Origin: Gillisia limnaea DSM 15749
GTDB lineage: Bacteria > Bacteroidota > Bacteroidia > Flavobacteriales > Flavobacteriaceae
Reading direction: 5' to 3'
NCBI RefSeq assembly: GCF_000243235.1
Contig: NZ_JH594606.1
Span: forward strand, 367,476-431,475
DNA: 64,000 nt
In this document: positions 11,652 through 37,277 of the stretch, in pieces
Numbering within the stretch: the first letter of the stretch is position 1
Layout: each line of letters opens with the position of its first letter
Notes under the pieces: model-generated
The model's database searches: none
Seen by the model: only the letters and a program-made list of their open reading frames with translations
Told to the model about the DNA's origin: nothing
Translations under genes and position numbers: made by a program

Positions 11652-11699
11652 TTTATTTGTTTATTTGTTTATTTGTTTATTTGTTTATTTGTTTAATTG
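11652..11699. repeat. Octamer tandem array (TTATTTGT)n, left side of a four-helix-bundle gene
   Basis: About six tandem copies of TTATTTGT, nearly perfect, run from the start of legC to the stop of the four-helix-bundle gene. On the other side of that gene (12068-12109) there is a degenerate array with ACATAAAC-like units, which is roughly the reverse complement, so a transcript could fold back around the gene. Confidence 0.85.
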
Positions 11700-12065
11700 T
11701 TATTTGGTGACGGGATTGAGACTACTTTTTCTAAGTGAATTTAATTTATTCGCGATTTTAGATATCTCTATTCTAAATGATTCTTCTTCAGTAATATATC
11801 CTAATTCAAAACTTATAATAATTTGACTTAATACTTCCATCAAACTACTAAATGCCAAATGGTAAAAATGAGCCTGATCTTTTGGTGACATTCTCGAAGA
11901 ACCTTCAGCTATATTTGAAGTTACAGATATGATTGCCCTTCTCAACTGACTAACTAGACCATACTTTTCTTCATTAGGAAAATCCTTTGTTACTTTATAT
12001 ATCTGATGCGTTAAACCCTTCGCATCCTGCCACACTTCTAATTTTTCGAAACTAAATTTTTTCAT
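11700..12065 (-). CDS. Four-helix bundle protein (23S rRNA-IVS / S23 family)
   Basis: A 121-residue protein of the TIGR02436-type four-helix bundle family (relatives are encoded in 23S rRNA intervening sequences; Avd of diversity-generating retroelements shares the fold). Marks are FEKLEVWQDAKGL near the N-terminus, LVSQLRRAIISVTSNIAEGSSR around residues 38-58 and HLAFSSLMEVLSQI. No function is established for free-standing members. It interrupts the legionaminic acid cluster between legC and legB, and is enclosed by two octamer arrays. Three other members occur in this window. Confidence 0.85.
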   Translation of the reverse strand: MKKFSFEKLEVWQDAKGLTHQIYKVTKDFPNEEKYGLVSQLRRAIISVTSNIAEGSSRMSPKDQAHFYHLAFSSLMEVLSQIIISFELGYITEEESFRIEISKIANKLNSLRKSSLNPVTK

Positions 12066-12067
12066 AT

Positions 12068-12109
12068 TAATCAGTTAAACAATTCATCACATAAACACAT
12101 AAACATAAA
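12068..12109. repeat. Degenerate octamer array, right side of the four-helix-bundle gene
   Basis: Short AT-rich units such as CACATAAA and CATAAACA. Read on the minus strand they give TTTATGTG and TTTATGTT, close to the TTATTTGT units of the array at 11652-11699, so the two arrays are imperfect inverted repeats. Confidence 0.55.
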
Positions 12110-12111
12110 TC

Positions 12112-13299
12112 TTACATCTTAGCATCTAAGTATTTCCCAGTCTCTTTATGACCGAAATCAGGGATCATTTTATGAAATAAATCTACAATTTCGTCTTTGG
12201 TCCAACTTTTGGAATTTCTGAATCCGGTAATTGTCTCTTCAAATAATTGAAGCTTTTCGTTTTCAAATTTCAATTCATTTTTAATAATCCCTAAATTTTG
12301 AAACCTGTCCAAATCCAAAATTTCCTTATCTGTAAAGAACTCTTCAAAATCTTTTTCTCCGGTGGTATCACTTCCGGTAAATAAACAAGGCCACTTTTTT
12401 TGATCTGGCAATGTTTTTACAAGTTCACGTGCTTCCTCCTCATTTTCGCAAAGATAAGGTTCATATCCCAACTGCTCCAGATATTTAACAGCAATATCCG
12501 CAAATGAGATAAGATGTAATTTTTCGCTTAGTTTTGGGAAAAACACATCCCTGTTCTCTCCAAAAATACAAGACATTAGGCATAACTCACCCGATTCCTG
12601 AGGCGTGACAAAATAACGCTTCACATCATTTGGTGCGACAATAGGTTGTTTTTTCTGAATTCGTTGGTTAAACCCATGCAATAGTGAACCATCTGAAAAG
12701 GCAACGTTGGCAAAACGGGCAGTAGATATTTTGATATCCTTACTTCTGCGCATTAAAAACATCTCCATAATACGCTTGGAAGCTCCCATCATATTAACCG
12801 GGTTCGCAGCCTTATCTGTAGAAACGCAAAAATATTTTTTGGTGCCATTTTCGATAGATTGAAGCAAGGTTTTATCGGTATTGAAAACATTGACATCGAT
12901 CATACGCATTAATGTAAAAGGATCTTTTTCACTACGCACGTGTTTTAAAGCGGAAAGATTTAGAACATAATCATATTTTCCATCAGCTTTTATAAAAGCT
13001 TCATATTCAAGGGAACCAATATCAAGAGCGAAAGTTCTAAAATCTCCGTCAATATATCCATAAGAACTGCGTACATCCCTCACCAACTCGACCATATTGT
13101 TTTCACTAATATCTACGACATGAAGTTTCTGTGGATTTCTTTTAAAAATTTCTTTTGTTACTGCCTGCCCTATTGAGCCGGCACCTCCTAGAACTAAAAA
13201 TGAAGAAGTTGAAATAATTTTTGATAATTCATCTTGATTTGAATCGATATCAGTTTTAAATAATTGATTATCTCTACCGATTAGTTTCAATATATTCAT
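12112..13299 (-). CDS. legB: Sugar-nucleotide 4,6-dehydratase, LegB/PtmB type
   Basis: Opens the legionaminic acid route by converting the nucleotide-linked GlcNAc to the 4-keto-6-deoxy sugar. The 395-residue SDR protein has the nucleotide-binding FLVLGGAGSIGQA near residue 34-46, NLSALKHVRSEKDP and the STDKAANPVNMMGASKRIME segment in which M replaces Y of the usual YxxxK (as in the extended FlaA1/PglF-like enzymes), plus a C-terminal extension of about 90 residues seen in LegB. It starts directly after the stop-side base of the GlcA epimerase (no gap). A short relic with the same N-terminal motif occurs at 14657-14815. Confidence 0.85.
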   Translation of the reverse strand: MNILKLIGRDNQLFKTDIDSNQDELSKIISTSSFLVLGGAGSIGQAVTKEIFKRNPQKLHVVDISENNMVELVRDVRSSYGYIDGDFRTFALDIGSLEYEAFIKADGKYDYVLNLSALKHVRSEKDPFTLMRMIDVNVFNTDKTLLQSIENGTKKYFCVSTDKAANPVNMMGASKRIMEMFLMRRSKDIKISTARFANVAFSDGSLLHGFNQRIQKKQPIVAPNDVKRYFVTPQESGELCLMSCIFGENRDVFFPKLSEKLHLISFADIAVKYLEQLGYEPYLCENEEEARELVKTLPDQKKWPCLFTGSDTTGEKDFEEFFTDKEILDLDRFQNLGIIKNELKFENEKLQLFEETITGFRNSKSWTKDEIVDLFHKMIPDFGHKETGKYLDAKM

Positions 13300-14331
13300 T
13301 TATATATTTTTATTTTTGCGATAATATTGCTTATACCAGTCTATGAATTCACCCACTCCTTTAGTAACCGAGGTATTTGGACTATAATTATAATCTTTCT
13401 TTAGAGATTCTACATCTGCCCAGGTCCTTGTAACATCTCCGGGTTGCATTGGTAGCATTTCCTTTTTAGTAGTTACTCCAATTTTCCTTTCTATCTCTGT
13501 AATAAAATCCATTAATTTTACCGGATTACTATTTCCTATATTATAAAGTGCATATTTATCATCTGTACTTAGAGTTCCCTTATCTATAATCTTAAAAACT
13601 CCCTCTATAATGTCATCTATATAGGTGAAATCTCTTTCTAAATTCCCATTATTAAAAACCTTTATAGGCCTTTCGTTCATAATTGCATCTGTAAACAAAA
13701 ACATCGCCATATCCGGACGTCCCCAAGGTCCATATACTGTGAAGAATCTTAAACCTGTAGTCTTAAATCCATAGAGATGACTATAGGTGTAGGCCATTAA
13801 TTCATTGCTTTTTTTAGTGGCAGCATATAAACTAATTGGTTGGTCTACATTATCCTCTACAGAAAAAGGAATCTTATCATTTTGACCATAGACACTTGAG
13901 CTACTTGCAAATATTAGGTGGTTTATATTATTATGTCTGCAACATTCTAATAAATTTAAAAAGCCAACAATATTACTATCAATGTATGATTCCGGATTAT
14001 CAATACTATATCTTACACCTGCCTGTGCGGCCAAATTACACACTTTACTAAAATTATAATCTTTAAACAGGTTTGGAAGTTGTTCCCTATCTTGTAAGTT
14101 TAATCTAATAAATTTAAAATTATCAAATTTAGTGCTGGATGAAAGATTATTGTATTCCTCCGCATCCGTTCTTTTAACACCTAACTCTTTTAATCTATCA
14201 TATTTTAGATTTATATCGTAATAATCATTTATGTTATCCAACCCAATTACCGAATAACCTTGATCCAATAGGCATTTTGATAGATGAAAACCTATAAAAC
14301 CAGCTGCTCCCGTTACTAAAATATAATCCAT
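13300..14331 (-). CDS. UDP-glucuronate 4-epimerase-like SDR protein
   Basis: A 343-residue extended SDR: LVTGAAGFIGFHLSKCLLDQG (NAD binding) at the start, NDYYDINLKYDRL (typical of UDP-glucuronate epimerases), SSSSVYGQNDKIPF, catalytic YAATKKS near residue 168 and LRFFTVYGPWGRPDMA. The family interconverts UDP-glucuronate and UDP-galacturonate. Ugd at 21338-22732 could supply UDP-glucuronate. It lies next to legB with zero spacing and downstream of relic DNA (14344-14815). Confidence 0.82.
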   Translation of the reverse strand: MDYILVTGAAGFIGFHLSKCLLDQGYSVIGLDNINDYYDINLKYDRLKELGVKRTDAEEYNNLSSSTKFDNFKFIRLNLQDREQLPNLFKDYNFSKVCNLAAQAGVRYSIDNPESYIDSNIVGFLNLLECCRHNNINHLIFASSSSVYGQNDKIPFSVEDNVDQPISLYAATKKSNELMAYTYSHLYGFKTTGLRFFTVYGPWGRPDMAMFLFTDAIMNERPIKVFNNGNLERDFTYIDDIIEGVFKIIDKGTLSTDDKYALYNIGNSNPVKLMDFITEIERKIGVTTKKEMLPMQPGDVTRTWADVESLKKDYNYSPNTSVTKGVGEFIDWYKQYYRKNKNI

Positions 14332-14343
14332 ATAGTTTTTTCT

Positions 14344-14656
14344 TTAACTCCCTATAACAAATACTACAAAACCGATTTCTTTTAGTTCTGCTTTGTTTAA
14401 TAATCTTCTGCCATTAAATAAAAATAAAGATTTAAAAATATTTTGATAATTTGCTTGCCAATCAATGTTTACAAATTCATCCCATCCAGTTATAATTCCA
14501 ATCGCGTGAGAATCATTACAGGTAACTTGTGCTGTATTTACCACCATTAACCCATTCACGAATTTCCTCGCTACTATGAGTTCCCAAAAATTAAAGATCT
14601 GCATATAACTTTTCATTTATCACCTTAGGATCATACACCCCTATTTCCGCTTGCAA
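14344..14656 (-). pseudogene. Relic of a UDP-glucose 6-dehydrogenase 3' end
   Basis: The frame at 14344-14616 and the shifted DNA just before it match the last ~90 residues of the intact Ugd at 21338-22732: QAEIGVYDPKV against [29 protein letters not shown].., WDEF.NIDWQANY and LFLFNGRRLLNK then the same IGF..F.IGS ending. There are an in-frame stop and at least two frameshifts, so it is not a gene. It joins directly to a legB-like relic at about 14657. Confidence 0.8.
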
Positions 14657-14815
14657 AATTATAATCTAAATAGCCAAAAGAGCTGGGAATGTCCCTAACC
14701 AGCTCTGCCATATTGTTTTCAGCCATATCTCCTATTTTAGTTTCCTGGAATTTCTTTATAAAAATTTCCTTGGTTATAGCTTGACCTATCTAGCCTGCGC
14801 AGTCCTTGCCATATT
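14657..14815 (-). pseudogene. Relic of a LegB-like dehydratase 5' part
   Basis: Minus-strand translation gives an internal stop followed by IGQAITKEIFIKKFQ and AENNMAELVRDIPSSFGYLD, which lines up with IGQAVTKEIFKRNPQ and SENNMVELVRDVRSSYGYID of the intact legB at 12112-13299. It covers about residues 35-75 of that protein and then runs without a gap into the ugd relic. Confidence 0.75.
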
Positions 14816-14865
14816 TTATTATTATAATGTTATTATAAAAAGCTAAACTAAATTTAAGACGGATT

Positions 14866-15711
14866 CTATAAATTTAATTTTTTCCTTAGCAGTACATTCT
14901 TTCTTACTCTTTTATAGTAGAGACGCGAAAGCTTATAAAATAATTTAAACATTTGATTAAAAGAAATAAATCCCATACTTTTTGCTCTATATATATCATT
15001 AATATATTGCTTAAATATTAGATTTAAATTAAGTTTTAAAATATTATTAGGAGCAGATATACTGGATTCATGAATGCGATATTGTATAACCTTTGTGCTG
15101 CTAAACCAGAGCTTTCCAATTAGAAGAGCTCTTAGAACACTGGTAGAATCTTCTGTTGGACAATTATTATTTAAAGGCCTGAAAATCTCAAACAATTCTC
15201 GTCTATATATACGAGAACAACCGCTACTTTTAATCTTTTTACCCCTTATGAAATCCTCAAGATTTCCATAGGATGTTTTTCGCTCAGAAGATGATCTTTT
15301 AATTTCTACTCCCGCATTATCTATTTGTTGAACCTCAAAATCAGCAATGAAAGTATCCTTCTTATCTTTTATAAAATTATATGACACCTCTGTGCGATTT
15401 GAAAATGATATATCATCACCAGCTGCTATCACAATAAAATCACCTTTTGCTTTATTAAATATGACATTATTAAAATGCGTAACTAATCCCTGATTATGTT
15501 GATTGAAGTTAACTTTCACTAAATGTTCTCCTTTGTAATTGCGAACAACTTTTGTAATAATTTCAACAGTTCTATCTGTAGAACAATCATCTGAAATTAT
15601 TATTTCAAGAGGGGAATAGGTCTGCAAAAAAGCCCCCATGATGGCCTCTTCAATGTATTCCTCTTGATTATATGATAATAAACAAAAAGAGATTAATGGA
15701 TTACTGCTCAT
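14866..15711 (-). CDS. Family 2 glycosyltransferase
   Basis: A 281-residue GT-A enzyme: ISFCLLSYNQEEYIEEAI at the start, IIISDDCSTDRT near residue 37 and AAGDDISF near 96 (the acidic metal/nucleotide-binding motif), followed by a short C-terminal part. No membrane segments. Sugar and acceptor are unknown. It is the last gene of the group that makes the dTDP-3-acetamido sugar, so it may transfer that residue; this is inference. Confidence 0.8.
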   Translation of the reverse strand: MSSNPLISFCLLSYNQEEYIEEAIMGAFLQTYSPLEIIISDDCSTDRTVEIITKVVRNYKGEHLVKVNFNQHNQGLVTHFNNVIFNKAKGDFIVIAAGDDISFSNRTEVSYNFIKDKKDTFIADFEVQQIDNAGVEIKRSSSERKTSYGNLEDFIRGKKIKSSGCSRIYRRELFEIFRPLNNNCPTEDSTSVLRALLIGKLWFSSTKVIQYRIHESSISAPNNILKLNLNLIFKQYINDIYRAKSMGFISFNQMFKLFYKLSRLYYKRVRKNVLLRKKLNL

Positions 15712-15770
15712 GTTTTATATTTAAATCAGTCAAAACATTAAAATTCTCAATATAGTATATCTTAAGATTT

Positions 15771-19706: not shown

Positions 19707-19712
19707 AAAATA

Positions 19713-19776
19713 TTGTTAAGTTGTCAAATTGTAAAGTTGTAATGTTGCAAAGTTGTCGGTTTGTTAAATTGTGAAG
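19713..19776. repeat. Octamer array (AAGTTGTn-like), left of a broken four-helix-bundle gene
   Basis: Degenerate units such as AAGTTGTC, AAATTGTA, AAGTTGTA and AAGTTGTC. Their reverse complement resembles the ACAACTTC/ACAGTTTT units at 20175-20236 on the other side of the gene, giving an imperfect inverted pair around it. Confidence 0.7.
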
Positions 19777-19780: not shown

Positions 19781-20135
19781 TTAATCCGCCTTTAAAGTTT
19801 TATATAACGCATTCAACTGATTTGTAATATGTTCTGCTTTTTTTCTTGAATCAAGATATTTATCTTCTTTAATAAATTCTAAATCTGAACTTAGAATAAG
19901 AAGATTTATTACTTCCCATGCCGAACTATAGGCAATATTTATAAACCTTGCTTTTTCAGTTCGATAATTTCTTAAAAAGCCTTCTGCAATATTTGCTCTA
20001 ATACTTACTTCTTATTTGACTTATTAATCCGAATTTTTCTGCATTTGGAAATGACTCTGTTTTTAAATAAATATCTTTTACAAAAATACGAGCATTCTTC
20101 CAGACCTCTAACTTTTCAAAATAAAATTCATACAT
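19781..20135 (-). pseudogene. Four-helix bundle protein gene, disrupted by an 8-base deletion
   Basis: This DNA is almost the same as the intact four-helix-bundle gene at 36782-37144, from the start (MYEFYFEKLEVWKNAR) to the stop. The intact copy has CTTACAGTTGCCCTTC where this one has CTTACTTC: eight bases (AGTTGCCC) are lost and the frame breaks in the middle. Other differences are single bases. Both copies lie immediately downstream of an rmlB gene, so the pair was duplicated together. Confidence 0.85.
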
Positions 20136-20174
20136 GATTCTACTTCATTAAATCTTTAAACAAGTTCACTGCAT

Positions 20175-20236
20175 CCTCTTTTTACAACTTCAAAGTTTTA
20201 CATCTTCACAGTTTTACAATTTCACAGCTTTGCTTT
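20175..20236. repeat. Octamer array (ACAGTTTT-like), right of the broken four-helix-bundle gene
   Basis: Units ACAACTTC, AAAGTTTT, ACATCTTC, ACAGTTTT, ACAATTTC and ACAGCTTT in a row with 8-base spacing. The counterpart at 37191-37277 beside the intact copy has the same unit type but is longer. Confidence 0.75.
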
Positions 20237-22732: not shown

Positions 22733-22737
22733 CTAAT

Positions 22738-22868
22738 CGTTAGTTCGTGAATTCGTGAGTTCGTGAGTTCGTTAGTTTGTGAATTCGTTAATTCGCGGTT
22801 TCGTTAATTCGCAGTTTCGTTAGTTCGTGAATTCGTTAGTTCGTTCGTTAGTTCGTTAGTTCGTAAAT
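22738..22868. repeat. Octamer array (TTAGTTCG/TGAATTCG units)
   Basis: About sixteen units of 8 bases (GTTAGTTC, GTGAATTC, GTGAGTTC, GTTAATTC and variants) between the ugd start and the four-helix-bundle gene stop. Units vary at two or three positions only. On the far side of the gene (23376-23470) units such as CGAATTAA and CGATTCCC read roughly as the reverse complement. Confidence 0.85.
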
Positions 22869-22887: not shown

Positions 22888-23256
22888 TTACTCATTTGAC
22901 TTTCTTAAATACCTTATATAGCCATTAATTACCTGCATACATCGGGTCGTTTGATTTCTTATTTCCTTCAAAGTTTCATCTGAAATATACTCCCAGGATT
23001 TTGCTTCAATCCCATGATCCAGAATTTCAGCTACTGAACCACGTGCATTTACCAAAAATTTTATATTATCCTTATAATGATATCTTCCCCACCCCTCAGC
23101 TATATTAGCTGTCGCCGACCTTGATGCTCTTAATATTTGACTGTATAATTCGAACCGCTCTGATTTAGGAAGTTTCATAAGAACATTCTCTTTCAGGAAA
23201 ATCTTTAATTCATTGCATCTTTGCCAACACTCCAAGCTCTCAAAACTATGAGCCAT
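22888..23256 (-). CDS. Four-helix bundle protein (23S rRNA-IVS / S23 family)
   Basis: A 122-residue member of the same family as the genes at 11700 and 36782 but of a different subgroup: SFESLECWQRCNELKIFLKE, LYSQILRASRSATANIAEGWGRYHYKDN around residues 40-67 and a C-terminal INGYIRYLR. The ANIAEG core is the family mark. It is bordered by TTCGTTAG-type arrays on both sides. Function unknown. Confidence 0.85.
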   Translation of the reverse strand: MAHSFESLECWQRCNELKIFLKENVLMKLPKSERFELYSQILRASRSATANIAEGWGRYHYKDNIKFLVNARGSVAEILDHGIEAKSWEYISDETLKEIRNQTTRCMQVINGYIRYLRKSNE

Positions 23257-23260
23257 AATT

Positions 23261-23565
23261 TATTCGTTAGTTCGGTAAACCGTTAGTTCGTTAGTTCGTT
23301 CACTCGTTAGTCCGAATCATTATTTTACGACCAAATTATGAATCCCTTTTCTAATTAAAAATTTTACGAATCTCGGATTAACCAATCCGCAATTAATAAA
23401 TCCCGACTCACAAATCCCGCATCTCGAATTAACGGATCACGATTCCCGAATAACGATTCTACTTCACAACATCACTTCGTCACAACATTACTATATCACA
23501 GCGTTACTTCGTAATTTCATCACAACGTCACAGCGTCACTTCGTTACTTCTTCACAGTCATAGTG
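23261..23565. repeat. Mixed octamer arrays between the four-helix-bundle gene and the 50-residue ORF
   Basis: Three blocks in a row: TTAGTTCG units (23265-23310), then units like ACGAATCT, CGGATTAA, CAATCCGC, CGATTCCC (23360-23460), then CATCACTT, CGTCACAA, CAGCGTCA, CTTCGTTA units up to 23560. It contains the first 72-base direct repeat (23304-23375). I see no gene in it. Confidence 0.8.
23304..23375. repeat. 72-base direct repeat, copy 1
   Basis: Begins TCGTTAGTCCGAATC and ends TTTTACGAATCTCG. It matches 23788-23859 with only a handful of differences. The two copies are in the same direction and enclose the 50-residue ORF at 23566-23718. Confidence 0.85.
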
Positions 23566-23718
23566 CTACTCCGGCTTAATTTTCACTATTTTATCACCTC
23601 TTATAATGACAAGTTTACTATTTTTCGCTTTTTTGAATTCTATAAGTCTTTCATAAACTTTTTCAAGTCCGATTAAAATCTTATCCTTTAATTCGATTTG
23701 TTTATCCTTGGTTGTCAT
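23566..23718 (-). CDS. Hypothetical 50-residue protein in a repeat-enclosed cassette
   Basis: Minus-strand ORF from ATG (23716-23718) to TAG: MTTKDKQIELKDKILIGLEK, then VYERLIEFKKAKNSKL and VIIRGDKIVKIKPE. The first half is a likely amphipathic helix and the second a short beta strand pair ending in IKPE. It looks like a real coding sequence because its base make-up differs sharply from the octamer arrays on both sides. I do not recognise a family with certainty. It lies between 72-base direct repeats and arrays, like the other small genes of this region. Confidence 0.6.
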   Translation of the reverse strand: MTTKDKQIELKDKILIGLEKVYERLIEFKKAKNSKLVIIRGDKIVKIKPE

Positions 23719-24008
23719 AATTATTTTTTAATTCAGTAAATGGTTAATCGTTGATTCGTTAGTTCGTTAACTCATTAATTGGTTCATTCGTTAGTCCGAA
23801 TCCTTATTTTACGACAAAATTATGAATCCCTTTCCTAAATATAAATTTTACGAATCTCGAATTAACGAATCTCGAATTAACTATTCCCGGTGTAACGATT
23901 CCCGAATCACGATTTCCGAATTAACTATTCCCCAATCACTATTTACCAATCCCTAATTAACCAATCCCCAATCACGAACTCACCAATCCCGAATTAACGA
24001 ATCCCGGA
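23719..24008. repeat. Octamer arrays upstream of the 50-residue ORF
   Basis: Starts with CGTTAGTT/CATTAATT units, contains the second 72-base direct repeat, and continues as CGAATTAA, CTATTCCC, CGATTCCC, CCAATCCC units up to the stop codon of the UDP-HexNAc dehydrogenase gene. No gene seen. Confidence 0.8.
23788..23859. repeat. 72-base direct repeat, copy 2
   Basis: Same sequence as 23304-23375 apart from a few single-base changes, 484 bases further on in the same direction. Confidence 0.85.
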
Positions 24009-25289
24009 TTAAAGTTTTTTATCGCATTTATCACCAAGCACTCCCTTAACATCATACACAACTGTACTTCCGTTTTTGAATTTATCTAAATCCAGTTGTA
24101 AAAATTCTTTATGCGAAACCGCAAGGACCACTGCATCAAAGGTTTCGGTTGGTAATGTCTTCGTTGTAGTCAATCCATATTCGTGTTTTACTTCATTTGG
24201 ATTAGCTAAAGGATCATAAATTGTCACATTGGTTCCATACTCTTTAAGATTCTTGATCACATCAACAACCTTCGTATTTCTGACATCGGGACAGTTTTCC
24301 TTAAAAGTAATTCCAAGAACCAGAATATTTGCTCCTTTAACTTTAATGTCATTTTGCAACATTAGCTTCACAACCTCGCTGGAAACATATTGTCCCATAG
24401 AGTCATTCATTCTTCTTCCGGCAAGGATAATTTCAGGATGATATCCCAATTCCTGTGCTTTTTGGGCAAGGTAATAAGGATCTACTCCGATACAATGTCC
24501 GCCAACAAGACCCGGCTTGAAAGGTAAAAAGTTCCATTTTGTACCCGCTGCTTCCAAAACATCCTGAGTGTCGATATCCATCATATTGAAGATCTTGGCC
24601 AGTTCATTTACGAAGGCGATATTGATATCCCGCTGGGAATTTTCAATAACCTTGGCAGCTTCTGCTACTTTTATAGTTGGTGCCAAATGGGTGCCGGCAG
24701 TAATCACCTGGGCATATAATTCGTCGACCTTCTTTCCAATCTCCGGAGTTGAGCCGGCAGTTACTTTAAGTATTTTTTCAACAGTATGCTCCTTATCACC
24801 CGGATTAATCCTCTCAGGTGAATAACCGGCGAAGAAATCTACATTGAATTTGAGTCCGCTAACTTTTTCAAGCACAGGAACACACTCATCCTCAGTTACA
24901 CCCGGATATACGGTAGATTCATAGATCACTATATCCCCTTTCTTAAGAACTTTCCCTACCGTTTCACTACTCTTATATAATGGAGTAAGATCTGGTCGAT
25001 TATTTTTATCTACCGGTGTTGGAACAGTTATAATGTAATAATTACAATCTTTTATATCATCCAGATTAGTAGTGCAGTAGAGTCCGTTTTCATTAGAAGG
25101 ATTTTGGACTAATGAAGCTTTTAAAAGATCATCTTCCACCTCAAGAGTACTGTCATGACCCTTCTTTAGTTCATCGACTCTACCCTGATTAATGTCAAAT
25201 CCTATTACGGGGTATTTGGTTGCAAAAAGTCTTGCCAGCGGAAGACCAACGTAGCCTAATCCTATTACGGCGATTTTAATATTGTTCAT
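24009..25289 (-). CDS. tviB: UDP-N-acetyl-hexosamine 6-dehydrogenase (WbpA/TviB/VipA type)
   Basis: Oxidises UDP-GlcNAc (or GalNAc) to the uronic acid. The 426-residue protein has IAVIGLGYVGLPLARLFATK at 5-24, TVPTPVDKNNRPDLTPL near 88, ESTVYPGVTE, SPERINPGDKEH (a WbpA/TviB mark) and catalytic Cys in PGLVGGHCIGVDPYYLA near residue 266. This differs from the VGGP-type Ugd at 21338. The TviC/WbpP-type epimerase is the next gene upstream, as in Vi antigen and Pseudomonas O-antigen clusters, so the pair should make UDP-GalNAc uronic acid. Confidence 0.87.
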   Translation of the reverse strand: MNNIKIAVIGLGYVGLPLARLFATKYPVIGFDINQGRVDELKKGHDSTLEVEDDLLKASLVQNPSNENGLYCTTNLDDIKDCNYYIITVPTPVDKNNRPDLTPLYKSSETVGKVLKKGDIVIYESTVYPGVTEDECVPVLEKVSGLKFNVDFFAGYSPERINPGDKEHTVEKILKVTAGSTPEIGKKVDELYAQVITAGTHLAPTIKVAEAAKVIENSQRDINIAFVNELAKIFNMMDIDTQDVLEAAGTKWNFLPFKPGLVGGHCIGVDPYYLAQKAQELGYHPEIILAGRRMNDSMGQYVSSEVVKLMLQNDIKVKGANILVLGITFKENCPDVRNTKVVDVIKNLKEYGTNVTIYDPLANPNEVKHEYGLTTTKTLPTETFDAVVLAVSHKEFLQLDLDKFKNGSTVVYDVKGVLGDKCDKKL

Positions 25290-25614
25290 TTCTTAATTGG
25301 TTTATTTTTTTAGTACCGAGTGACCATGTGATGGTGTAACGTAGTCTCTTTTCAGCTTTTTTTTTCATCACTTCGGCACTGTATTACATTTTTACTTCGT
25401 TTTTTATCACAGCGCCACTTCTTCACAGCGTCACTTCATCACAACATCACTTCTTCACTTCTTCACCGCGTTACTTCACCACAACATCACAGCGTCACTT
25501 CGTTACTTCACCACAACATCACTTCTTCACCGCGTCACTTCTTTACTTCTTTACAACTTCACTTCTTCACTTCTTCACTGCTCTACTTCATAACAACGTC
25601 ACAGCGTCACTGCT
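25290..25614. repeat. Array of CACTTC/CATCACAG-type units between tviB and tviC
   Basis: The 325 bases between the two genes are filled from about 25370 on with short units such as CACTTCTT, CACAGCGT, CACAACAT and TTACTTCG, mostly spaced 7-9 bases. It runs up to the stop of the epimerase gene. No ORF, no hairpin terminator; the two genes of one pathway are thus split by an array. Confidence 0.85.
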
Positions 25615-26613
25615 TCACTTCAAATTTTTCCAATACCAATTGACAGCCTCTTTTAATCCGGCTCTAATATCAAATTGAGGATTGTAGCCTAATTTTTCTT
25701 TCGCTTTTTCTACCGAAGCCAAGGAATGCGGAATATCACCAGCCCTATTTGGTCCGTGTTTGATTTCAATTTTCGCTATTTCAGGATCGTATTTGGATAA
25801 ATATTCTTTCAGCAAAGTAGTAAGTTCCAATAAATTTGTTCGGTCACCCACTGCGGTATTGTACACCTCATTTACAGCTTCTTCATTTTCAGAAGTAAGC
25901 GCCAGAAGATTCATTTGAATTACGTTGTCTATATACGTGAAATCGCGGGAATAGGTGCCGTCTCCGTTGATCAAAGGAGATTCGTGGTTCATCAACTGTA
26001 TAACAAATTTTGGAATTACGGCTGCATAAGCTCCGTCCGGATCTTGTTTTCTGCCAAAAACATTGAAATATCTAAGTCCGATAGTGTCCAGATCGTAGGC
26101 AGATTTGAAAATATCGGCGTATAGTTCGTTTACATATTTTGTTATTGCATAAGGAGAAAGTGGTTTTCCTATCACATCTTCCACCTTTGGCAGATTTTCT
26201 GAATCTCCGTAGGTAGATGAACTGGCTGCATATACGAAGCGTTTTACTTTAGCATCCCGTGCTGCAACCAACATATTTAAAAACCCTGAAACATTCACCT
26301 CATTGGTGGTAATTGGATCCTTTAACGAACGCGGAACCGAACCTAATGCGGCTTCATGAAAAATATAATCAACTCCTTTAGCTGCTCTATGGCAGGTTTC
26401 AAGATTTCGGATATCTCCTTCTATTAAGGTGAAATTGGAATGTTCAATAATTGCGGAAAGATTTTCTCTTTTTCCGGTGGCGAAGTTATCCAGGCAAACC
26501 ACACTTGCATCGAGTTCTATAAGCTTTTCACAAAGATTAGAACCTATAAAGCCGGCGCCACCTGTAACCAATATTTTTTTAGAACTTAATTTTGAAAATT
26601 GTTCCTTTTGCAT
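25615..26613 (-). CDS. tviC: UDP-N-acetylglucosamine(uronate) C4-epimerase (WbpP/TviC/VipB type)
   Basis: A 332-residue extended SDR. KKILVTGGAGFIGSNLCEKL at the start, DNFATGKRENL (usual in WbpP/TviC), FHEAALGSVPRSLKDP, AASSSTYGDSENLPK, catalytic YAITKYVNE near residue 152 and LRYFNVFGRKQDPDGAYAAVI. These are the marks of epimerases acting on N-acetylated UDP sugars. It precedes the WbpA/TviB-type dehydrogenase. A clear -7 element lies 24 bases before the ATG, so this gene heads a transcription unit. Confidence 0.87.
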   Translation of the reverse strand: MQKEQFSKLSSKKILVTGGAGFIGSNLCEKLIELDASVVCLDNFATGKRENLSAIIEHSNFTLIEGDIRNLETCHRAAKGVDYIFHEAALGSVPRSLKDPITTNEVNVSGFLNMLVAARDAKVKRFVYAASSSTYGDSENLPKVEDVIGKPLSPYAITKYVNELYADIFKSAYDLDTIGLRYFNVFGRKQDPDGAYAAVIPKFVIQLMNHESPLINGDGTYSRDFTYIDNVIQMNLLALTSENEEAVNEVYNTAVGDRTNLLELTTLLKEYLSKYDPEIAKIEIKHGPNRAGDIPHSLASVEKAKEKLGYNPQFDIRAGLKEAVNWYWKNLK

Positions 26614-29465: not shown

Positions 29466-29522
29466 GGAACTTCAAATTGGGGTTAGAAAATTTTATTTTA
29501 AAATTTTCTAATTAAAAATGGG

Positions 29523-29530: not shown

Positions 29531-29603
29531 TAACAAATGGAAAGGCCAAATTAAAATTAGATTAAAAAATTAAAAGTATGTATTTATGAATAAAACCAAA
29601 GGC

Positions 29604-30488
29604 CTATCCAATTCCTTTCTCCACAGTATTTAATAAATAGTCGCCATACTCATTATTCTTAAATTGTTTGGCTATTGCACCAAGTTGTCCTTTTGAAATA
29701 TAGCCTTTTCTCCAGGCTATCTCCTCTAAACAAGCAATTTTCAGCCCTTGCCTTTTTTCTATAGTTTGTATGAAGTTTGAAGCTTCCAACCTAGAATCAT
29801 GGGTTCCGGTATCCAGCCAGGCATAACCACGCCCTAATTACTCCACGTTTAATAGGCTTTCCTGTAAATAGTATTGATTTACAGCGGTAATTTCCAGTTC
29901 TCCCCTTTCACTCGGGGTGATTTGTTTAGCAACTTCAATAACTGAATTCGGATAAAAATAAAGCCCCGTGACCGCGAAATTGCTCATTGGCTTTTTCGGT
30001 TTTTCCTCAATACTAAGAACTTTCCCTTCTTCATCAAAATCCACCACTCCATACCTTCCGGGATCCTGCACATAATATCCAAAAACGGTTGCCAGTTTTT
30101 CCTTTTCGGTTTTTTCTACGGCTCGATTTAGCAAATTACCAAAACCCTGTCCGTAAAATATATTGTCTCCCAAAATGAGGCAAACATCCTCTTCTCCAAT
30201 AAAATCTTCGCCCAAAATAAAAGCCTGTGCCAATCCATCGGGTGAAGGTTGGGCTTTATAGGAAAACTTCATTCCTAATCTTTTTCCATCTCCCAGCAAC
30301 TTTTTAAAATTCGGTAAATCTTCAGGCGTCGAGATTATCAAAATTTCCCTAATCCCCGCAAGCATCAAAACCGATAAAGGATAGTAGATCATCGGCTTGT
30401 CGTAAATTGCCAGGAGTTGCTTGGAGACTCCTTTAGTTATTGGATAAAGTCTGGTGCCGGAGCCTCCGGCGAGTATCATTCCTTTCAT
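29604..30488 (-). pseudogene. rmlA: Second glucose-1-phosphate thymidylyltransferase, broken by an in-frame stop
   Basis: The two frames 29838-30488 and 29604-29789 are in the same reading frame and together form a 294-codon RmlA. The N-terminal part has [22 protein letters not shown] and [12 protein letters not shown]; the C-terminal part has [14 protein letters not shown] and [15 protein letters not shown]. The break is one TAA at 29838-29840 in LLNVE-stop-LGRG, where homologues have an ordinary residue (AAA to TAA would do). The lost tail carries part of the catalytic domain, so it is likely inactive; rmlA at 18843 is intact and could replace it. Confidence 0.85.
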
Positions 30489-30491
30489 AAA

Positions 30492-30530
30492 ACACAGATT
30501 TCACGGATTAAAAATTGATTACACGGATTG
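30492..30530. repeat. GATTACACGG-type array, left of the GxxExxY gene
   Basis: Units CACAGATT, TCACGGATT, GATTACACGGATT. The right side of the gene (30921-30950) carries the reverse complement type (TGTGTAATCC, TTGTAATCCGTGCAATC), giving an inverted pair around the gene. Confidence 0.8.
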
Positions 30531-30538
30531 TTGGGTCA

Positions 30539-30919
30539 TTATTTAGTATTTATAAAGCGTTTCCAGGTTAAACTAGATTGACCAAAATTAATTAATAAAC
30601 CTAATTGGTAATTTGTGGATTTTAGATAATTTATGGTTTGAGCTTCGGTATCCTTATGTAAAAATGAAGCTGCTTTAATTTCAATCACTATTTTATCAAA
30701 ACAGATAAAGTCAGCAATAAAATATTTTTTCAAAGGTGCATCTTTATAATAGACCTGCAATTTCTTCTTGCTCTCAAAAATAACCTTCTGCATTTCAAAT
30801 TCATTTTCTAATGCTTCATGATAAACAGATTCCAAAAACCCGGCACCTAAATTCTTGTGCACTGTCATACAAGCACCAATAACTTTATATGTCTCATCCC
30901 CGAATAATAGTTTGTCCAT
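30539..30919 (-). CDS. GxxExxY protein
   Basis: A 126-residue protein of the GxxExxY family (TIGR04256-like, related to PD-(D/E)XK-like small proteins): YKVIGACMTVHKNLGAGFLESVYHEAL carries the naming motif GFLESVY, followed by KKYFIADFICFDKIVIEIKAA and a conserved C-terminal LGLLINFG. The D...EIKAA pattern resembles a nuclease core, but function is not established. It lies between inverted ACGGATT-type arrays, and a truncated second copy follows at once. Confidence 0.85.
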   Translation of the reverse strand: MDKLLFGDETYKVIGACMTVHKNLGAGFLESVYHEALENEFEMQKVIFESKKKLQVYYKDAPLKKYFIADFICFDKIVIEIKAASFLHKDTEAQTINYLKSTNYQLGLLINFGQSSLTWKRFINTK

Positions 30920-30920
30920 T

Positions 30921-30950
30921 TCTGTGTAATCCTTTGTAATCCGTGCAATC
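30921..30950. repeat. GTAATCC-type array, right of the GxxExxY gene
   Basis: Reads TGTGTAATCC, TTTGTAATCC, GTGCAATC; reverse complement of the array at 30492-30530 with a few differences. Confidence 0.8.
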
Positions 30951-30962
30951 TTTTAATTATTA

Positions 30963-31074
30963 TTACCAAAGCTTCTTCATAAACAGCCTCCAAGAATCCT
31001 GGACCCAAGGTTCTATGCACTTTCATGCAAGCTCCTATTATTTTATAACTTTCTTTTTTAAATACTATTACCAC
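30963..31074 (-). pseudogene. Truncated GxxExxY gene (5' part only)
   Basis: From ATG 31074 the frame gives ESYKIIGACMKVHRTLGPG and FLEAVYEEALVI, the first third of a GxxExxY protein distinct in sequence from the intact copy. After that it runs into the array at 30921-30950 and the reading frame loses all similarity. An ATTCG-type array (31084-31118) lies upstream. Confidence 0.8.
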
Positions 31075-31083
31075 CCAGAATCC

Positions 31084-31118
31084 ATTCGTTCAATTCGTTT
31101 TAATTCGTGTTAATTCGA
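31084..31118. repeat. AATTCGTT octamer array
   Basis: ATTCGTTC, AATTCGTT, TTAATTCG, TGTTAATTCG in a row upstream of the truncated GxxExxY gene. Confidence 0.65.
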
Positions 31119-31150
31119 TTTCCTCCTAAGCAATTCCCATTTCAGAAAAC

Positions 31151-32758: not shown

Positions 32759-32790
32759 ATTTAAATTTTATATTGATGCTACTTAATATT

Positions 32791-32824
32791 TAGATTACGC
32801 GGATTTAGACGAATTACGCGGATT
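32791..32824. repeat. GATTACGCGGATT array without a gene
   Basis: TAGATTACGCGGATTTAGAC then GAATTACGCGGATT: the same unit type that borders the GxxExxY gene, here left over at the 3' end of the DegT aminotransferase gene (whose last codons are built from it). Confidence 0.7.
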
Positions 32825-33902: not shown

Positions 33903-35335
33903 TTTTTAAAAATAAGTTTAGAAAGTTCAAAAAAGCTTCCGAATTTAAACAAAAAAGCCGTGAACAGATAAACGGAAGTGCCTACTACTCCACCTATAAG
34001 AATTCTTATTATATCCATATTTAATTTCAAACCAAAGTAGTCTAATAAAAAAACAATTCCTCCTGCAAAAACGGCCAACAAAATTATTGGAAAAACATCT
34101 TTTAGCTGTTGCAAAGCGCTATAGTTAATAAATTTCCCGGTATAATGAGCGTTGATAAAAAAGGCAAAGATGGAAATAAATACCTGACCATATAATAAGG
34201 CTATAATACCAAACGGGATCGTAATGAGAAGGGTAATAACTATGATTATTTTCTTAATTACCTCCAATTTCAAAAACAGGTCACTTCTCCCTTTTACATT
34301 CAGGATACTTAAATTATAAGAGTGAATAGGAAACAGGATCCCTGTAATACAAAGTATTTGAAAGTAGGGAACCGCCGGCAACCACTTTTCTGTAAATAAA
34401 AATCGAAAGCTAGGCTCGGCAAGCACTGCCATAAAGATTAAAATTGGAGTAATTACAAAAACGACCATTTGCATAAGTTGCTTATATACTCTTCTTAAAC
34501 GCACATCATCATTTTGAATTGAAACAAACAAGGGGAAAGTCACCTTATTTAAGGCATTGGAAATATTAGTTACGGGGAGTTGATTCATAGTTTGGGCACG
34601 GGTATAAAATCCAACCTGGGCTGCGGAAAAATATCTACCGATAACTATTAAAAAAATATTGTTAAAGATCCTGTCCAATAACTCGGATAGGGTTAATTTA
34701 TAACCATAATTAAAATGAGCTTTAAATTTTTGAAAATTAAAATTTAAACCGGGTGTCCAGCCGGAATATATCCAAAGCTGCACTGTACTAATGATTGATG
34801 TAACAATGCTGCTCCACACAAGACTCCATACTCCATAACCGGTCATAGCCATCACCACTCCAACGATTCCACCAATAATGGCGGCGGGAATTGCAATTAT
34901 TGTCTGGGTTTTAAAATCCATGATTTTTGTCAGTCTCGCCAATTGAACAGCGGCAAATGCCGAAATTATGAAAGTAACACAGTAAACTCTCAAAATCCCT
35001 GTAAGTATAGGCTGGGAATAAAAATCGGCAACGAGAGGAGCTAAAAGAAATACACCCAAATACACTATAATACCAGCTGCCAAATTAAAATAAAAAACGG
35101 TGGAATAATCCTGGGCATCAAGATCTTCGCCCCTTATAAGGGATTTGGTTAGCCCTCCGTGCAGCAAGGTGTTCCCTACTGCAACAAACACAGCAATCAT
35201 TCCAATTAACCCAAATTCCTCCGGCATTAAAATCCTTGCCAGGATCAGGGAAACAAGAAACCCGATAAGCTGGTTTCCAAACTGCTGGGTATAGGTCCAT
35301 ACCAAACTTATTGCAGTTTGTTTTTTTAAAGACAT
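33899..35335 (-). CDS. Wzx-type lipopolysaccharide/polysaccharide flippase
   Basis: A 478-residue member of the PST/MOP exporter superfamily with about twelve to fourteen membrane segments. It opens MSLKKQTAISLVWTYTQQFGNQLIGFLVSLILARIL split over the first 40 residues, the WzxC-like pattern, followed by MPEEFGLIGMIAVF and VGFYTRAQTMNQLPV. It would flip the undecaprenyl-linked repeat unit across the inner membrane. A -7 element lies upstream, and it couples by a 4-base overlap to the aminotransferase. No Wzy or chain-length regulator is recognisable nearby. Confidence 0.85.
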   Translation of the reverse strand: MSLKKQTAISLVWTYTQQFGNQLIGFLVSLILARILMPEEFGLIGMIAVFVAVGNTLLHGGLTKSLIRGEDLDAQDYSTVFYFNLAAGIIVYLGVFLLAPLVADFYSQPILTGILRVYCVTFIISAFAAVQLARLTKIMDFKTQTIIAIPAAIIGGIVGVVMAMTGYGVWSLVWSSIVTSIISTVQLWIYSGWTPGLNFNFQKFKAHFNYGYKLTLSELLDRIFNNIFLIVIGRYFSAAQVGFYTRAQTMNQLPVTNISNALNKVTFPLFVSIQNDDVRLRRVYKQLMQMVVFVITPILIFMAVLAEPSFRFLFTEKWLPAVPYFQILCITGILFPIHSYNLSILNVKGRSDLFLKLEVIKKIIIVITLLITIPFGIIALLYGQVFISIFAFFINAHYTGKFINYSALQQLKDVFPIILLAVFAGGIVFLLDYFGLKLNMDIIRILIGGVVGTSVYLFTAFLFKFGSFFELSKLIFKK

Positions 35336-35403
35336 TTATAAAATTGTTCCATAATTGTTGAGTTAAACTGCATTTCCGGTAAGATCATCGGTTAATCCAT
35401 TAA

Positions 35404-35411
35404 CAAAAGTA
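35404..35411 (-). promoter_or_regulatory. Putative -7 promoter element of the wzx unit
   Basis: Minus-strand TACTTTTG matches TAnnTTTG, about 70 bases before the Wzx ATG. It lies back to back with the promoter of the plus-strand GT10 gene. Confidence 0.45.
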
Positions 35412-35496
35412 TCAATTTCAAATTAGCCTGTCTACTTTAAGATATAATTTATGGTTTCTTAATATTGAAAAAGGCCTATTTACGTAAAATGCTTTT

Positions 35497-35530
35497 TTTG
35501 AATTTTTTTGAATCGCTATAAGTATATTTG
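35497..35530 (+). promoter_or_regulatory. Putative promoter of the GT10 gene
   Basis: TTTG at 35497-35500, 22 bases, then TATATTTG at 35523-35530: both Bacteroidota elements at accepted spacing. The transcript would start near 35537 and reach the ATG at 35614. Confidence 0.6.
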
Positions 35531-35613
35531 TTTTTACAACCCAAAAACACTTTCAAGCGATTGCGAAGTTATCGTTGAAAAATAAAATTCACAGAAAGTT
35601 TAAATGCTCTAAA

Positions 35614-36630
35614 ATGAAAACTTTGAAAATATGGTTTACTGATTTTTATCCTGGATTTGAACCTAAAGATAATTTGATTACCCAACTTTTATTTAAATCA
35701 TATAATATTGAATTCGATAAAAACAAGCCCGATTATCTAATTTACTCTTGCCATGGACACGAATTTTTGAATTATAATTGTGTGCGAATATTTTATACCG
35801 GTGAGAATTTAAAACCGGATTTTAACCTATGTGATTATGCCATTGGCTTTGATTACATCCATTTTAATAACAGATATCTGAGATTTCCGAATTTCGCGTT
35901 TTATGAAAGCCAATTTCAGCAATTAATAATTTCGAAAAACCCTGGTTCATTAGATCTTTCAGCCAAAAAACATTTCTGTAATTTTATTTATGCAAATTCA
36001 AACGCTGACCCAACAAGGGACAATTTTTTTTATCTTTTAAATAAATATAAAAAGGTTGCATCTCCAGGCAAGCATTTAAATAATATTTCAATGGATGTAG
36101 GAGAAAGATATGCGAAAGATTGGATGTTTACTAAAATAGAATTTCAATCCAGTTGTAAATTCTCCATTGCTTTTGAAAATACCTCATCGCCGGGATACAC
36201 TACCGAAAAACTACTGCACGCTTTTATTACAGGGACTATTCCCATTTACTGGGGTAATCCTGAAGTAATGAAAGACTTTAATCCAAAGGCATTTATTAAT
36301 TGCCATGATTTTGAAAGCTTTGAAGATGTTGTTAGCAAGGTAAAAGAAATTGATAATGACGATGAAATGTTCTTGTCGATGTTAAATGAACCGCCTTTTC
36401 GAAATAATATTATTCCTGAAAATTTAAAAAAAGAGCCATTATTAGTATTTTTAAAAAATATTTTTGATCAAAAAAGAGAAGATGCTTTCCAAAGATCTTT
36501 CTATGGAACTTCTGCTAAATATGAAAATGATATGAAAGAAATGATATTATTTAGGAAGAAGTATAGAAGTATGATCCAATTTCTAGGTTTGCTAAAAAAA
36601 ACCTTAAAAATTATGAAAAGAAATAGATAA
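35614..36630 (+). CDS. GT10 family alpha-1,3/4-fucosyltransferase-like protein
   Basis: A 338-residue protein of the GT10 family (Helicobacter pylori FucT relatives). KIWFTDFYPGFEP opens the fold; FCNFIYANSNADPTRDNFF and the donor site SIAFENTSSPGYTTEKLLHAF followed by GTIPIYWGNPEV are the diagnostic block (around residues 200-235). I chose the ATG at 35614 over a TTG at 35575 since similarity starts there. It is the only plus-strand gene in the polysaccharide region, with its own promoter, and GDP-fucose genes (gmd, fcl) are not in the window. It might use another GDP-6-deoxysugar. Confidence 0.85.
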   Translation: MKTLKIWFTDFYPGFEPKDNLITQLLFKSYNIEFDKNKPDYLIYSCHGHEFLNYNCVRIFYTGENLKPDFNLCDYAIGFDYIHFNNRYLRFPNFAFYESQFQQLIISKNPGSLDLSAKKHFCNFIYANSNADPTRDNFFYLLNKYKKVASPGKHLNNISMDVGERYAKDWMFTKIEFQSSCKFSIAFENTSSPGYTTEKLLHAFITGTIPIYWGNPEVMKDFNPKAFINCHDFESFEDVVSKVKEIDNDDEMFLSMLNEPPFRNNIIPENLKKEPLLVFLKNIFDQKREDAFQRSFYGTSAKYENDMKEMILFRKKYRSMIQFLGLLKKTLKIMKRNR

Positions 36631-36640
36631 TGAGGGAATA

Positions 36641-36675
36641 CTGATTACGCCGATTAAATCGGATTGCACAGATTC
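36641..36675. repeat. GATTACGCCGATT array without a gene
   Basis: CTGATTACGCCGATTAAATC then GGATTGCACAGATT, the GxxExxY-border unit type. It includes the palindrome CCGATTAAATCGG. Confidence 0.7.
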
Positions 36676-36689
36676 ATTCTGTCCATTTA

Positions 36690-36777
36690 TTGTTAAGTTG
36701 TAAAATTGTTAAGGTGTTAATTTGGCAAATTGTTAAGTTGTTAAGTTGTTAAGTTGTTAAGTTGTAAAAGTGTAAAA
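36690..36777. repeat. Octamer array (TTGTTAAG units), left of a four-helix-bundle gene
   Basis: About eleven 8-base units, four of them a perfect TTGTTAAG run near 36730-36760. Read against the array at 37191-37277 (ACAACTTC, ACAGCTTT units) it is its approximate reverse complement. Confidence 0.85.
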
Positions 36778-36781
36778 ATGT

Positions 36782-37144
36782 TTAGTGTGACTTTAAAGTT
36801 TTATATAATGCATTCAACTGATTTGTAATATGTTCTGCTTTTTTTCTTAAATCAAGATATTTATCTTCTTTCATGAATTCTAAATCTAAACTTAGAATAA
36901 GAAGATTTATTACTTCCCATGCCGAACTATAGGCAATATTTATAAACCTTGCTTTTTCAGTAATTGTTTTTCTTGAGAAACCTTCTGCAATATTTGCTGT
37001 AATACTTACAGTTGCCCTTCTTATTTGACTTGTTAATCCGAATTTCTCTGAATTTGGAAATGACTCTGTTGTTAAATAAATATCTTTTACAAAATGACGA
37101 GCATTCTTCCAGACCTCTAACTTTTCAAAATAAAATTCATACAT
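36782..37144 (-). CDS. Four-helix bundle protein (23S rRNA-IVS / S23 family)
   Basis: A 120-residue family member: YFEKLEVWKNARHFVKDIYL, LTSQIRRATVSITANIAEGFSR near residues 38-59 and SSAWEVINLLILSL. It is the intact twin of the broken gene at 19781-20135; the two differ by an 8-base deletion and a few substitutions. It lies just downstream of rmlB copy 2 and within inverted octamer arrays. Function unknown. Confidence 0.87.
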   Translation of the reverse strand: MYEFYFEKLEVWKNARHFVKDIYLTTESFPNSEKFGLTSQIRRATVSITANIAEGFSRKTITEKARFINIAYSSAWEVINLLILSLDLEFMKEDKYLDLRKKAEHITNQLNALYKTLKSH

Positions 37145-37190
37145 GATTCGACTTTATTAAATCTTTAAACAAGTTCACTCCATTCTCTTT

Positions 37191-37277
37191 TTACAACTTC
37201 ACAGCTTTACAGCTTTACAGCTTCACAGCCTACAACTTCACAGTTTTACATCTTCACAGCTTCACAATTTTACAGCT
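37191..37277. repeat. Octamer array (ACAGCTTT units), right of the four-helix-bundle gene
   Basis: Ten or so units (ACAACTTC, ACAGCTTT, ACAGCTTC, ACAATTTT) with 8-base spacing, ending at the rmlB stop codon, which the array partly supplies. Confidence 0.85.

What the first reader, a model, noticed from the sequence alone, without database searches (positions are those of the whole stretch)
11652..37277. Small genes enclosed by inverted arrays of degenerate 8-base repeats: a possible undescribed cassette type
Four four-helix-bundle genes (11700, 19781 broken, 22888, 36782) and a GxxExxY gene (30539) are each enclosed by arrays of ~8-base units. The unit differs from site to site (TTATTTGT, AAGTTGTA, TTAGTTCG, TTGTTAAG, GATTACAC), but wherever both sides can be read the right array is roughly the reverse complement of the left, so the gene could sit in the loop of a long RNA or DNA hairpin. 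Two unrelated protein families with the same architecture suggest a shared mechanism. The four-helix-bundle family is known from 23S rRNA intervening sequences, also hairpin-bounded, and from Avd, which binds RNA. A stand-alone IVS-like or mobile element is my inference.
Basis: partly seen in the sequence, partly recalled or inferred. Interest (0 to 1): 0.78.

Follow-up and report, generated by a model that had tools for sequence, protein, structure and literature searches.

The report
Small genes inside inverted repeat arrays
Two unrelated families of small bacterial genes are repeatedly found wedged between neighbouring operon genes, many copies bracketed by their own mirror-image arrays of short repeats, which looks like a widespread and so far unnamed kind of mobile element.

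Summary
In the window four four-helix-bundle genes (PF05635/TIGR02436; one broken) and one GxxExxY gene (PF13366, PD-(D/E)XK family) lie between short-unit arrays, complementary at every site (z 4.5-14.8), although at 22888 the direct match is stronger. Of 80 four-helix loci from many phyla 55 have complementary arms (score >=16), against 13 of 515 control genes and 3.7% of cross-locus pairings; 23 of 50 further copies do; GxxExxY 29 of 49. The four-helix period is mostly 7, then 8. GxxExxY arms have another vocabulary and no single period. Copies sit in sense between operon genes: the arm starts a median 2 nt after the upstream stop and ends 14 nt before the next ATG. Three congeners show the empty site as overlapping stop and start codons. 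Similar genes at different junctions carry similar arms, so gene and arms seem to move together; hairpin-like spacers without gene also occur. Not shown: an RNA hairpin, RNase III processing, any transposition enzyme. Tests for RNA-strand selection were negative. My reading: a new class of intercistronic foldback element, kin to rRNA intervening sequences through one of its two proteins.

The parts
11651..11697 (.). 3' arm (downstream of the gene): TTATTTGT array, period 8, copy at 11700
   Evidence: TRF 11652-11706 period 8; arm limits
11700..12065 (-). four-helix-bundle gene, PF05635 / TIGR02436
12066..12110 (.). 5' arm, complementary to 11651-11697 (score 25)
   Evidence: three congeners have stop/start overlap here instead of the element
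19714..19756 (.). 3' arm, period 8 (AAGTTGTA type)
19781..20140 (-). broken four-helix-bundle gene (two PF05635 pieces)
   Evidence: (pieces at window 19808-20011 and 20010-20117)
20184..20226 (.). 5' arm (TTTTACAACTTCACAG type), score 19
22737..22864 (.). 3' array, TTAGTTCG type, period 8/16
22888..23256 (-). four-helix-bundle gene, PF05635
23263..23311 (.). 5' array next to the gene, in the SAME orientation as the 3' array
23353..23401 (.). stretch further out that is inverted to 22783-22833 (score 19)
30487..30527 (.). 3' arm of the GxxExxY element (CACGGATTACACGG type)
30539..30919 (-). GxxExxY gene, TIGR04256 / PF13366 PD-(D/E)XK superfamily
30921..30960 (.). 5' arm, complementary to 30487-30527 (score 21)
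36692..36781 (.). 3' arm, TTGTTAAG array
36782..37144 (-). four-helix-bundle gene, PF05635; sister copy of 19781
37193..37281 (.). 5' arm, TTTACAGC array, complementary to 36692-36781 (score 42)
39302..39475 (.). pair of inverted arrays with no gene between them (score 17)

Best explanation
Each site is a copy of a small mobile or selfish 'intercistronic foldback element': one gene of about 120 codons (a four-helix-bundle IVP protein, or a GxxExxY PD-(D/E)XK protein) between two inverted arms built from short repeated units, lying in sense between the stop codon of one operon gene and the start codon of the next. SHOWN by comparison: the layout and its spread over phyla; arms complementary within a locus and not across loci; a different arm vocabulary for each family; the position at stop/start junctions; empty sites; similar genes with similar arms at different junctions; hairpin-like spacers without gene at one junction. 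INFERRED: insertion at a junction harms neither neighbour and the gene is read from the operon's transcript, so mainly sense copies at junctions persist; arms grow and shrink by slippage; their shared unit is kept alike by copying between arms when DNA folds back; the encoded protein acts on its own arms (nuclease by cutting the fold-back, four-helix ring by binding it), which would explain why each family keeps its own kind of arm. How a copy reaches a new junction is unknown.
For: Complementary arms in 55 of 80 loci against 13 of 515 control genes and 3.7% of 1579 cross pairings; 107 of 172 loci in four sets inverted, 17 direct, 21 of 3440 shuffles; 23 of 50 further copies, cross pairings 4.5% within and 0.9% between genomes. 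Same direction as both neighbours in 68 of 80 against 180 of 334 control ORFs. Arm start a median 2 nt after the upstream stop (n 67), arm end a median 14 nt before the next ATG (n 65). Empty site in three congeners; fadB-fadA spacers occupied, hairpin-like or short. 24 protein pairs >=70% identical at different junctions share arm units: 18.2 against 9.6 random upstream, 15.5 against 9.6 downstream. CRCRRR twice or more in 80% of 49 GxxExxY upstream flanks, 5% of 145 four-helix, 6% of 515 control flanks (motif chosen after looking).
Against: No transposase and no target-site duplication was identified, and no movement within one species was seen. 86 of 110 protein pairs >=70% identical sit at the same junction, so movement is slow. 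About a third of the best 80 loci and half of the 50 further copies fall short of the threshold; in one MAG (G241) 1 of 7 copies passes. GxxExxY on plasmids: 1 of 5 inspected passes. Two own-genome GxxExxY copies have far larger direct than inverted flank repeats (L009, L012). Most of the complementarity comes from a shared unit, not a mirrored order of units. The 24 moved pairs are not independent.
Confidence: 0.58

Rival explanations
1. RNA element: an mRNA version of the rRNA intervening sequence. The arms form an RNA stem with the gene in the loop; RNase III cuts the stem, releasing the gene's message and leaving the operon message in usable pieces.
For: Same protein family as the rRNA IVS protein; IVS stems are cut by RNase III (PMC4990558, passages). 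Sense orientation and strand asymmetry (upstream arm C 10%, G 29%; downstream reversed). Predicted arm duplexes are stronger within loci (-46 kcal/mol mean) than across (-30).
Against: Mismatches tolerated as sense-strand G.U pairs are not in excess (119 against 140, p 0.21). Whole-element folding of the five window copies is unremarkable (z -1.8, -1.3, +0.9, -2.2, -1.3). GxxExxY has no known link to rRNA intervening sequences.
Confidence: 0.24
2. Host regulatory module: the four-helix ring (or GxxExxY protein) binds the repeated units in the leader of its own message and tunes expression of the operon.
For: Fixed sites in many genera (fadB-fadA); conserved TGAG core in units that otherwise drift, in five congeners; a regulatory role was proposed for TAACTGA heptamers (PMC4679880, abstract).
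Against: Copy number 0-16 per genome and broken copies; unrelated operons; short empty spacers at the same junction in 13 of 30 genera (my reading); a nuclease-family protein in the same layout.
Confidence: 0.13
3. Slippage noise: arrays arise in any intergenic spacer and mean nothing.
For: Heptamer repeats are said to be over-represented in many bacteria (PMC4692102, passage); unit order is at most weakly mirrored.
Against: Tied to two gene families, inverted rather than direct (107 against 17 of 172), complementary only within a locus.
Confidence: 0.03

Closest known systems
rRNA intervening sequences with an IVP gene (e.g. Coxiella, CPR bacteria)
   Same: PF05635 protein; one small gene bounded by complementary ends that form a stem (28 bp in Coxiella; PMC4990558, passages)
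   Different: Ours lie between protein genes, not in rRNA; arms are short-unit arrays that differ per locus; the GxxExxY copies have no IVP gene
Heptamer arrays: TAACTGA (Beggiatoaceae, cyanobacteria, Bacteroidetes) and GGGAATC (Xanthomonas, Nostoc)
   Same: Short direct repeats in spacers between aligned ORFs; GGGAATC has 70 and 75 inverted pairs in two genomes (PMC4692102 section; PMC4679880 abstract and one section)
   Different: Neither text mentions S23 or four-helix genes in the term searches made; there the unit is one family per genome, here it differs per locus
RAYT/REP elements
   Same: A single gene with palindromes in intergenic space; one RAYT-like gene occupies the same fadB-fadA junction in L183 (name from its motif, recalled)
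   Different: No tyrosine transposase here; arms are not a fixed palindrome
Eukaryotic Foldback elements (FB, Galileo, Tetris)
   Same: Long inverted ends built from short tandem repeats (recalled; PMC4079207 and PMC3688188 seen only as search listings)
   Different: Different proteins and hosts; Foldback ends are shared between copies, ours are not
Avd of diversity-generating retroelements
   Same: Distant relative of the four-helix protein (bAvd and Avd hits below cut-off; PMC10053308 passages)
   Different: No reverse transcriptase or template repeat was noted beside these genes; no dedicated search was made

Membership tests
rRNA intervening sequence (IVS) | encodes a PF05635 protein | tested here: met
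   four-helix copies only; GxxExxY copies not
rRNA intervening sequence (IVS) | lies inside a 16S or 23S rRNA gene | tested here: not met
   window copies lie between protein genes; other loci have protein-coding neighbours by ORF call; no rRNA search was run
rRNA intervening sequence (IVS) | stem cut by RNase III | not testable with these tools
   needs RNA
rRNA intervening sequence (IVS) | complementary ends | tested here: met
Insertion sequence / MITE | transposase gene or a terminal inverted repeat shared between copies | tested here: not met
   proteins are PF05635 or PF13366; arms differ per locus, cross pairings of different loci in one genome >=16 in 4.5% of 200
Insertion sequence / MITE | target-site duplication | not tested
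   element ends cannot be fixed to the base
RAYT/REP | Y1 tyrosine transposase | tested here: not met
Foldback-type element | inverted ends made of short tandem repeats | tested here: met
   (four-helix copies; GxxExxY arms are less regular)
Cyanobacterial/Xanthomonas heptamer arrays | tandem heptamers between aligned ORFs | tested here: met
   period 7 in 95 of 172 upstream arms; 4 of 5 cyanobacterial plasmid copies inspected have complementary arms
Cyanobacterial/Xanthomonas heptamer arrays | same unit as the published arrays of the same genome | not tested
   those genomes could not be reached with the remaining collections

The most novel reading that the evidence does not exclude
The heptamer arrays long known from cyanobacteria, Xanthomonas, Beggiatoa and Bacteroidetes are arms and gene-less remains of one very widespread class of operon-junction element, of which the rRNA intervening sequence is a special case; each cargo protein reads or shapes its own kind of arm (four-helix ring: units of 7-8; GxxExxY nuclease: looser CRCRRR units).
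Probability: 0.4. Interest if true: 0.92.

Novelty: categorically new. Interest (0 to 1): 0.82.

Why it matters
It would give a home to two common families of unknown small bacterial proteins, explain why heptamer arrays exist and where they sit, and recast the rRNA intervening sequence as one outpost of an element that lives wherever a transcript can be interrupted harmlessly. It is directly testable by strain comparison, RNA-end mapping and gene deletion in laboratory strains.

Tried and rejected
One repeat spread through the genome by recombination: rejected, units differ between loci of a genome. The 50-codon ORF at 23569-23718 as a third cargo: its six relatives in other genomes have no complementary arms (L385-L390, scores 7-10). 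RNA-strand selection: wobble test neutral, folding unremarkable. Mirrored order of units: observed 26.9 matches of 33 against 23.8 after shuffling units, p<=0.05 in 15 of 101 loci, and biased by choosing the best register. Gene-less hairpins in the own genome: 10 of 221 spacers have a hairpin >=17; by eye only window 39302-39475 is array-like. GxxExxY in viral contigs: one locus, arms not tested. Defence libraries: no hit for the four proteins given. A literature link between these genes and arrays: none found in ten searches; only open-access PMC is held, so this is weak evidence of absence. Whether Xcc0516 of Xanthomonas lies between GGGAATC arrays could not be tested.

Choices that affect counts: the score threshold 16 was set. 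For GxxExxY, 8 fragment or broken loci (L013, L075-L077, L084-L087) and 2 loci of odd length (L284, L296) were left out of the 49. For viral contigs, 3 fragments were not given to and 1 was too short; 12 more loci, which I judged near-duplicates or too short, were dropped. For one search, I picked 40 places from the table, skipping truncated ones and most of those with stops; 2 of 70 lacked full flanks and 18 were already in the first set. I sorted the fadB-fadA spacers by eye: of 30, 7 four-helix, 1 RAYT-like, 5 hairpin-like without gene (fold z -4.9, -2.9, -2.1, -1.6, -1.3), 13 short, 3 other (L180, L194, L197), 1 not parsed (L190).
Full report
WHAT IS THERE. The window is G000:C2:367476-431475 of a 3.97 Mb genome of unnamed species; I take its family to be Flavobacteriaceae. 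Four PF05635 genes (one broken) and one TIGR04256/PF13366 gene lie in what looks by eye like a polysaccharide cluster. At all five the flanks are complementary well above shuffled sequence (z 4.5 to 14.8); at 22888 the direct match is stronger than the inverted one. The period is 8 beside the four-helix genes; the GxxExxY arms are less regular. The own genome has 11 PF05635 hits and 5 GxxExxY hits. Of ten loci printed outside the two window sites tested only, units differ from site to site and inverted z ranges from -0.4 to 10.4; at L009 and L012 the flanks share far larger direct repeats, as if the element had been duplicated in tandem.

IS IT GENERAL. With 150 nt each side, 55 of 80 reach an inverted score of 16, against 13 of 515 ORFs of the same loci and 3.7% of 1579 pairings between loci (p 2e-35 and 9e-41, loci not independent). 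In a stricter control 12 of 470 ORFs reach 16 and three of those are further four-helix genes. Over 172 loci in four sets, 107 reach 16 inverted, 17 direct, and 21 of 3440 shuffles: 55 of 80, 19 of 37 in the family, 14 of 28 in the genus, 19 of 27 viral. With 200-nt flanks the family set averaged 17.2 against 10.3 across loci, and 9 of 37 exceeded the 99th percentile. In 50 further copies from 16 genomes of other groups, 23 reach 16; one MAG (G241) had 1 of 7. Cyanobacterial plasmids: 4 of 5 inspected. Viral contigs: 26 of 38 before near-duplicates were dropped. In the window's family 45 of 60 genera have the gene family, 0 to 16 copies each; in the genus 15 of 16 genomes, own included.

TWO FAMILIES, TWO KINDS OF ARM. 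Four-helix upstream arms peak at period 7 (95) or 8 (27) of 172; where both arms are periodic they share the period in 82 of 90. Upstream arms are C-poor (10%) and G-rich (29%), downstream arms the reverse; G exceeds C in 51 of 55 upstream arms. GxxExxY flanks reach 16 in 29 of 49: 14 of 22 in the family and 15 of 27 across the phylum, cross pairings 5.3% of 702. They show no single period: of 22 upstream arms 8 passed the test, at 7, 7, 8, 9, 10, 10, 10 and 11. Two or more CRCRRR motifs occur in 80% of the 49 upstream flanks, against 5% of 145 four-helix and 6% of 515 control flanks (motif chosen after looking). On plasmids only 1 of 5 GxxExxY copies passes. GxxExxY matches PF13366, PD-(D/E)XK superfamily; catalytic activity was not tested.

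WHERE IT SITS. 68 of 80 four-helix copies point the same way as both neighbours, 35 of 37 in the family, GxxExxY 19 of 22, control ORFs 180 of 334. Among 74 loci with arms, the arm begins a median 2 nt after the upstream stop (n 67, quartiles -4 and 10.5) and ends a median 14 nt before the next ATG (n 65, quartiles 4 and 23). Named examples: cas6-[four-helix]-cas4 in Anabaena sp. 90 (arm score 27), in line with 18 IVP genes reported in cas loci (PMC3936711, passage); fabD-[GxxExxY]-fabG in Sphingomonas, where the arm score is only 9.

IT COMES AND GOES. For the window copy at 11700, three congeners have the same two genes with overlapping stop and start and no element. The downstream gene was found in 6 of 40 relatives: own genome, these three, and two outside the genus that I did not inspect. 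At fadB-fadA in 30 genera, by eye: 7 four-helix elements, 1 RAYT-like gene, 5 hairpin-like spacers without gene, 13 short spacers, 3 others, 1 unparsed. Among 149 loci, 110 protein pairs are >=70% identical: 86 at the same junction, 24 at different ones. The 24 have similar arms, 18.2 against 9.6 for random pairs upstream and 15.5 against 9.6 downstream (p 3e-15 and 9e-11, but several pairs share a locus). In five congeners with nearly the same protein at fadB-fadA, the upstream arm changes in number of units and in part of each unit while TGAG mostly stays; their inverted scores are 16, 11, 16, 17 and 10. The window copies at 19781 and 36782 are sister copies whose arms differ by indels near multiples of the unit; both follow an rmlB-like gene, so segmental duplication is possible.

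HOW IT MAY WORK. The data fit a foldback element that survives where it does least harm: between a stop and a start, in sense, read by the operon's transcription. No excess of sense-strand wobble pairs (119 against 140) and no unusual folding of the whole element speak against selection on an RNA stem and leave DNA-level homogenisation of the arms as the simpler reading. The register test shows that the arms share a unit rather than being mirrored copies. Strand asymmetry, sense orientation, and duplex energies within loci of -46 against -30 kcal/mol across loci keep an RNA role open. That each family keeps its own kind of arm suggests that each protein acts on its arms; this is inference.

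KNOWN OR NEW. The four-helix protein is kin to rRNA IVS proteins (PDB 2GSC and 2RLD). rRNA IVS are bounded by a stem and cut by RNase III (PMC4990558, passages) and occur in 16S and 23S genes of CPR (PMC11270868, passages). These copies are not in rRNA, and the GxxExxY half has no such link. Heptamer arrays were described without the gene: TAACTGA (PMC4679880, passages, abstract and one section) and GGGAATC with 70 and 75 inverted pairs in two Xanthomonas genomes (PMC4692102, passages, abstract and one section). Eukaryotic Foldback elements are alike in build (recalled). No known class considered met all its tests, hence 'categorically new', with the caution that only open-access papers were searched.

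Noticed in passing
window 25406-25621: Long period-8 array (TCACAGCGTCACTTCT type, 38% C, 7% G) between two genes with no complementary partner found among the nearby arrays.
   Followed up: partly
window 23258-24012: Arrays of both orientations with a repeated spacer of about 70 bp; 23728-23793 and 23850-24012 are inverted to each other (score 18).
   Followed up: partly
window 23569-23718: A 50-codon ORF with relatives in 5 of the other 99 genomes searched (44-82% identity); the relatives have no arrays.
   Followed up: yes
window 30922-31053: A partial second GxxExxY copy (model positions 2-44) beside the full gene, as if duplicated in tandem.
   Followed up: no
window 36642-36680: GATTACGCCGATT...GGATTGCACAG stretch that looks like a GxxExxY-type arm abutting the four-helix arm at 36692.
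   Followed up: no
window 54979-55075: Period-8 array (AATTTGTT) with no partner found.
   Followed up: no
window 38386-38602: 114-bp unit in about two copies, unrelated to the arrays.
   Followed up: no
L183, fadB-fadA spacer: A RAYT-like gene with GGCGCAATATTTTGCGCC-type palindromes at the junction that holds four-helix elements in other genera.
   Followed up: no
L298 (Anabaena sp. 90 plasmid) 1995-2363: Four-helix element between cas6 and cas4, a likely reason for IVP genes reported in cas loci.
   Followed up: partly
L023 3282-5153: An ORF that looks like mnmG is flanked on both sides by GTTCCACGTGGAAC-type palindromes.
   Followed up: no
L303 (Gemmatirosa plasmid) just upstream of position 2000: CCGCAGAGGACGCAGAGG hairpin beside a GxxExxY match with one stop in its frame: the same vocabulary in another phylum.
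   Followed up: no
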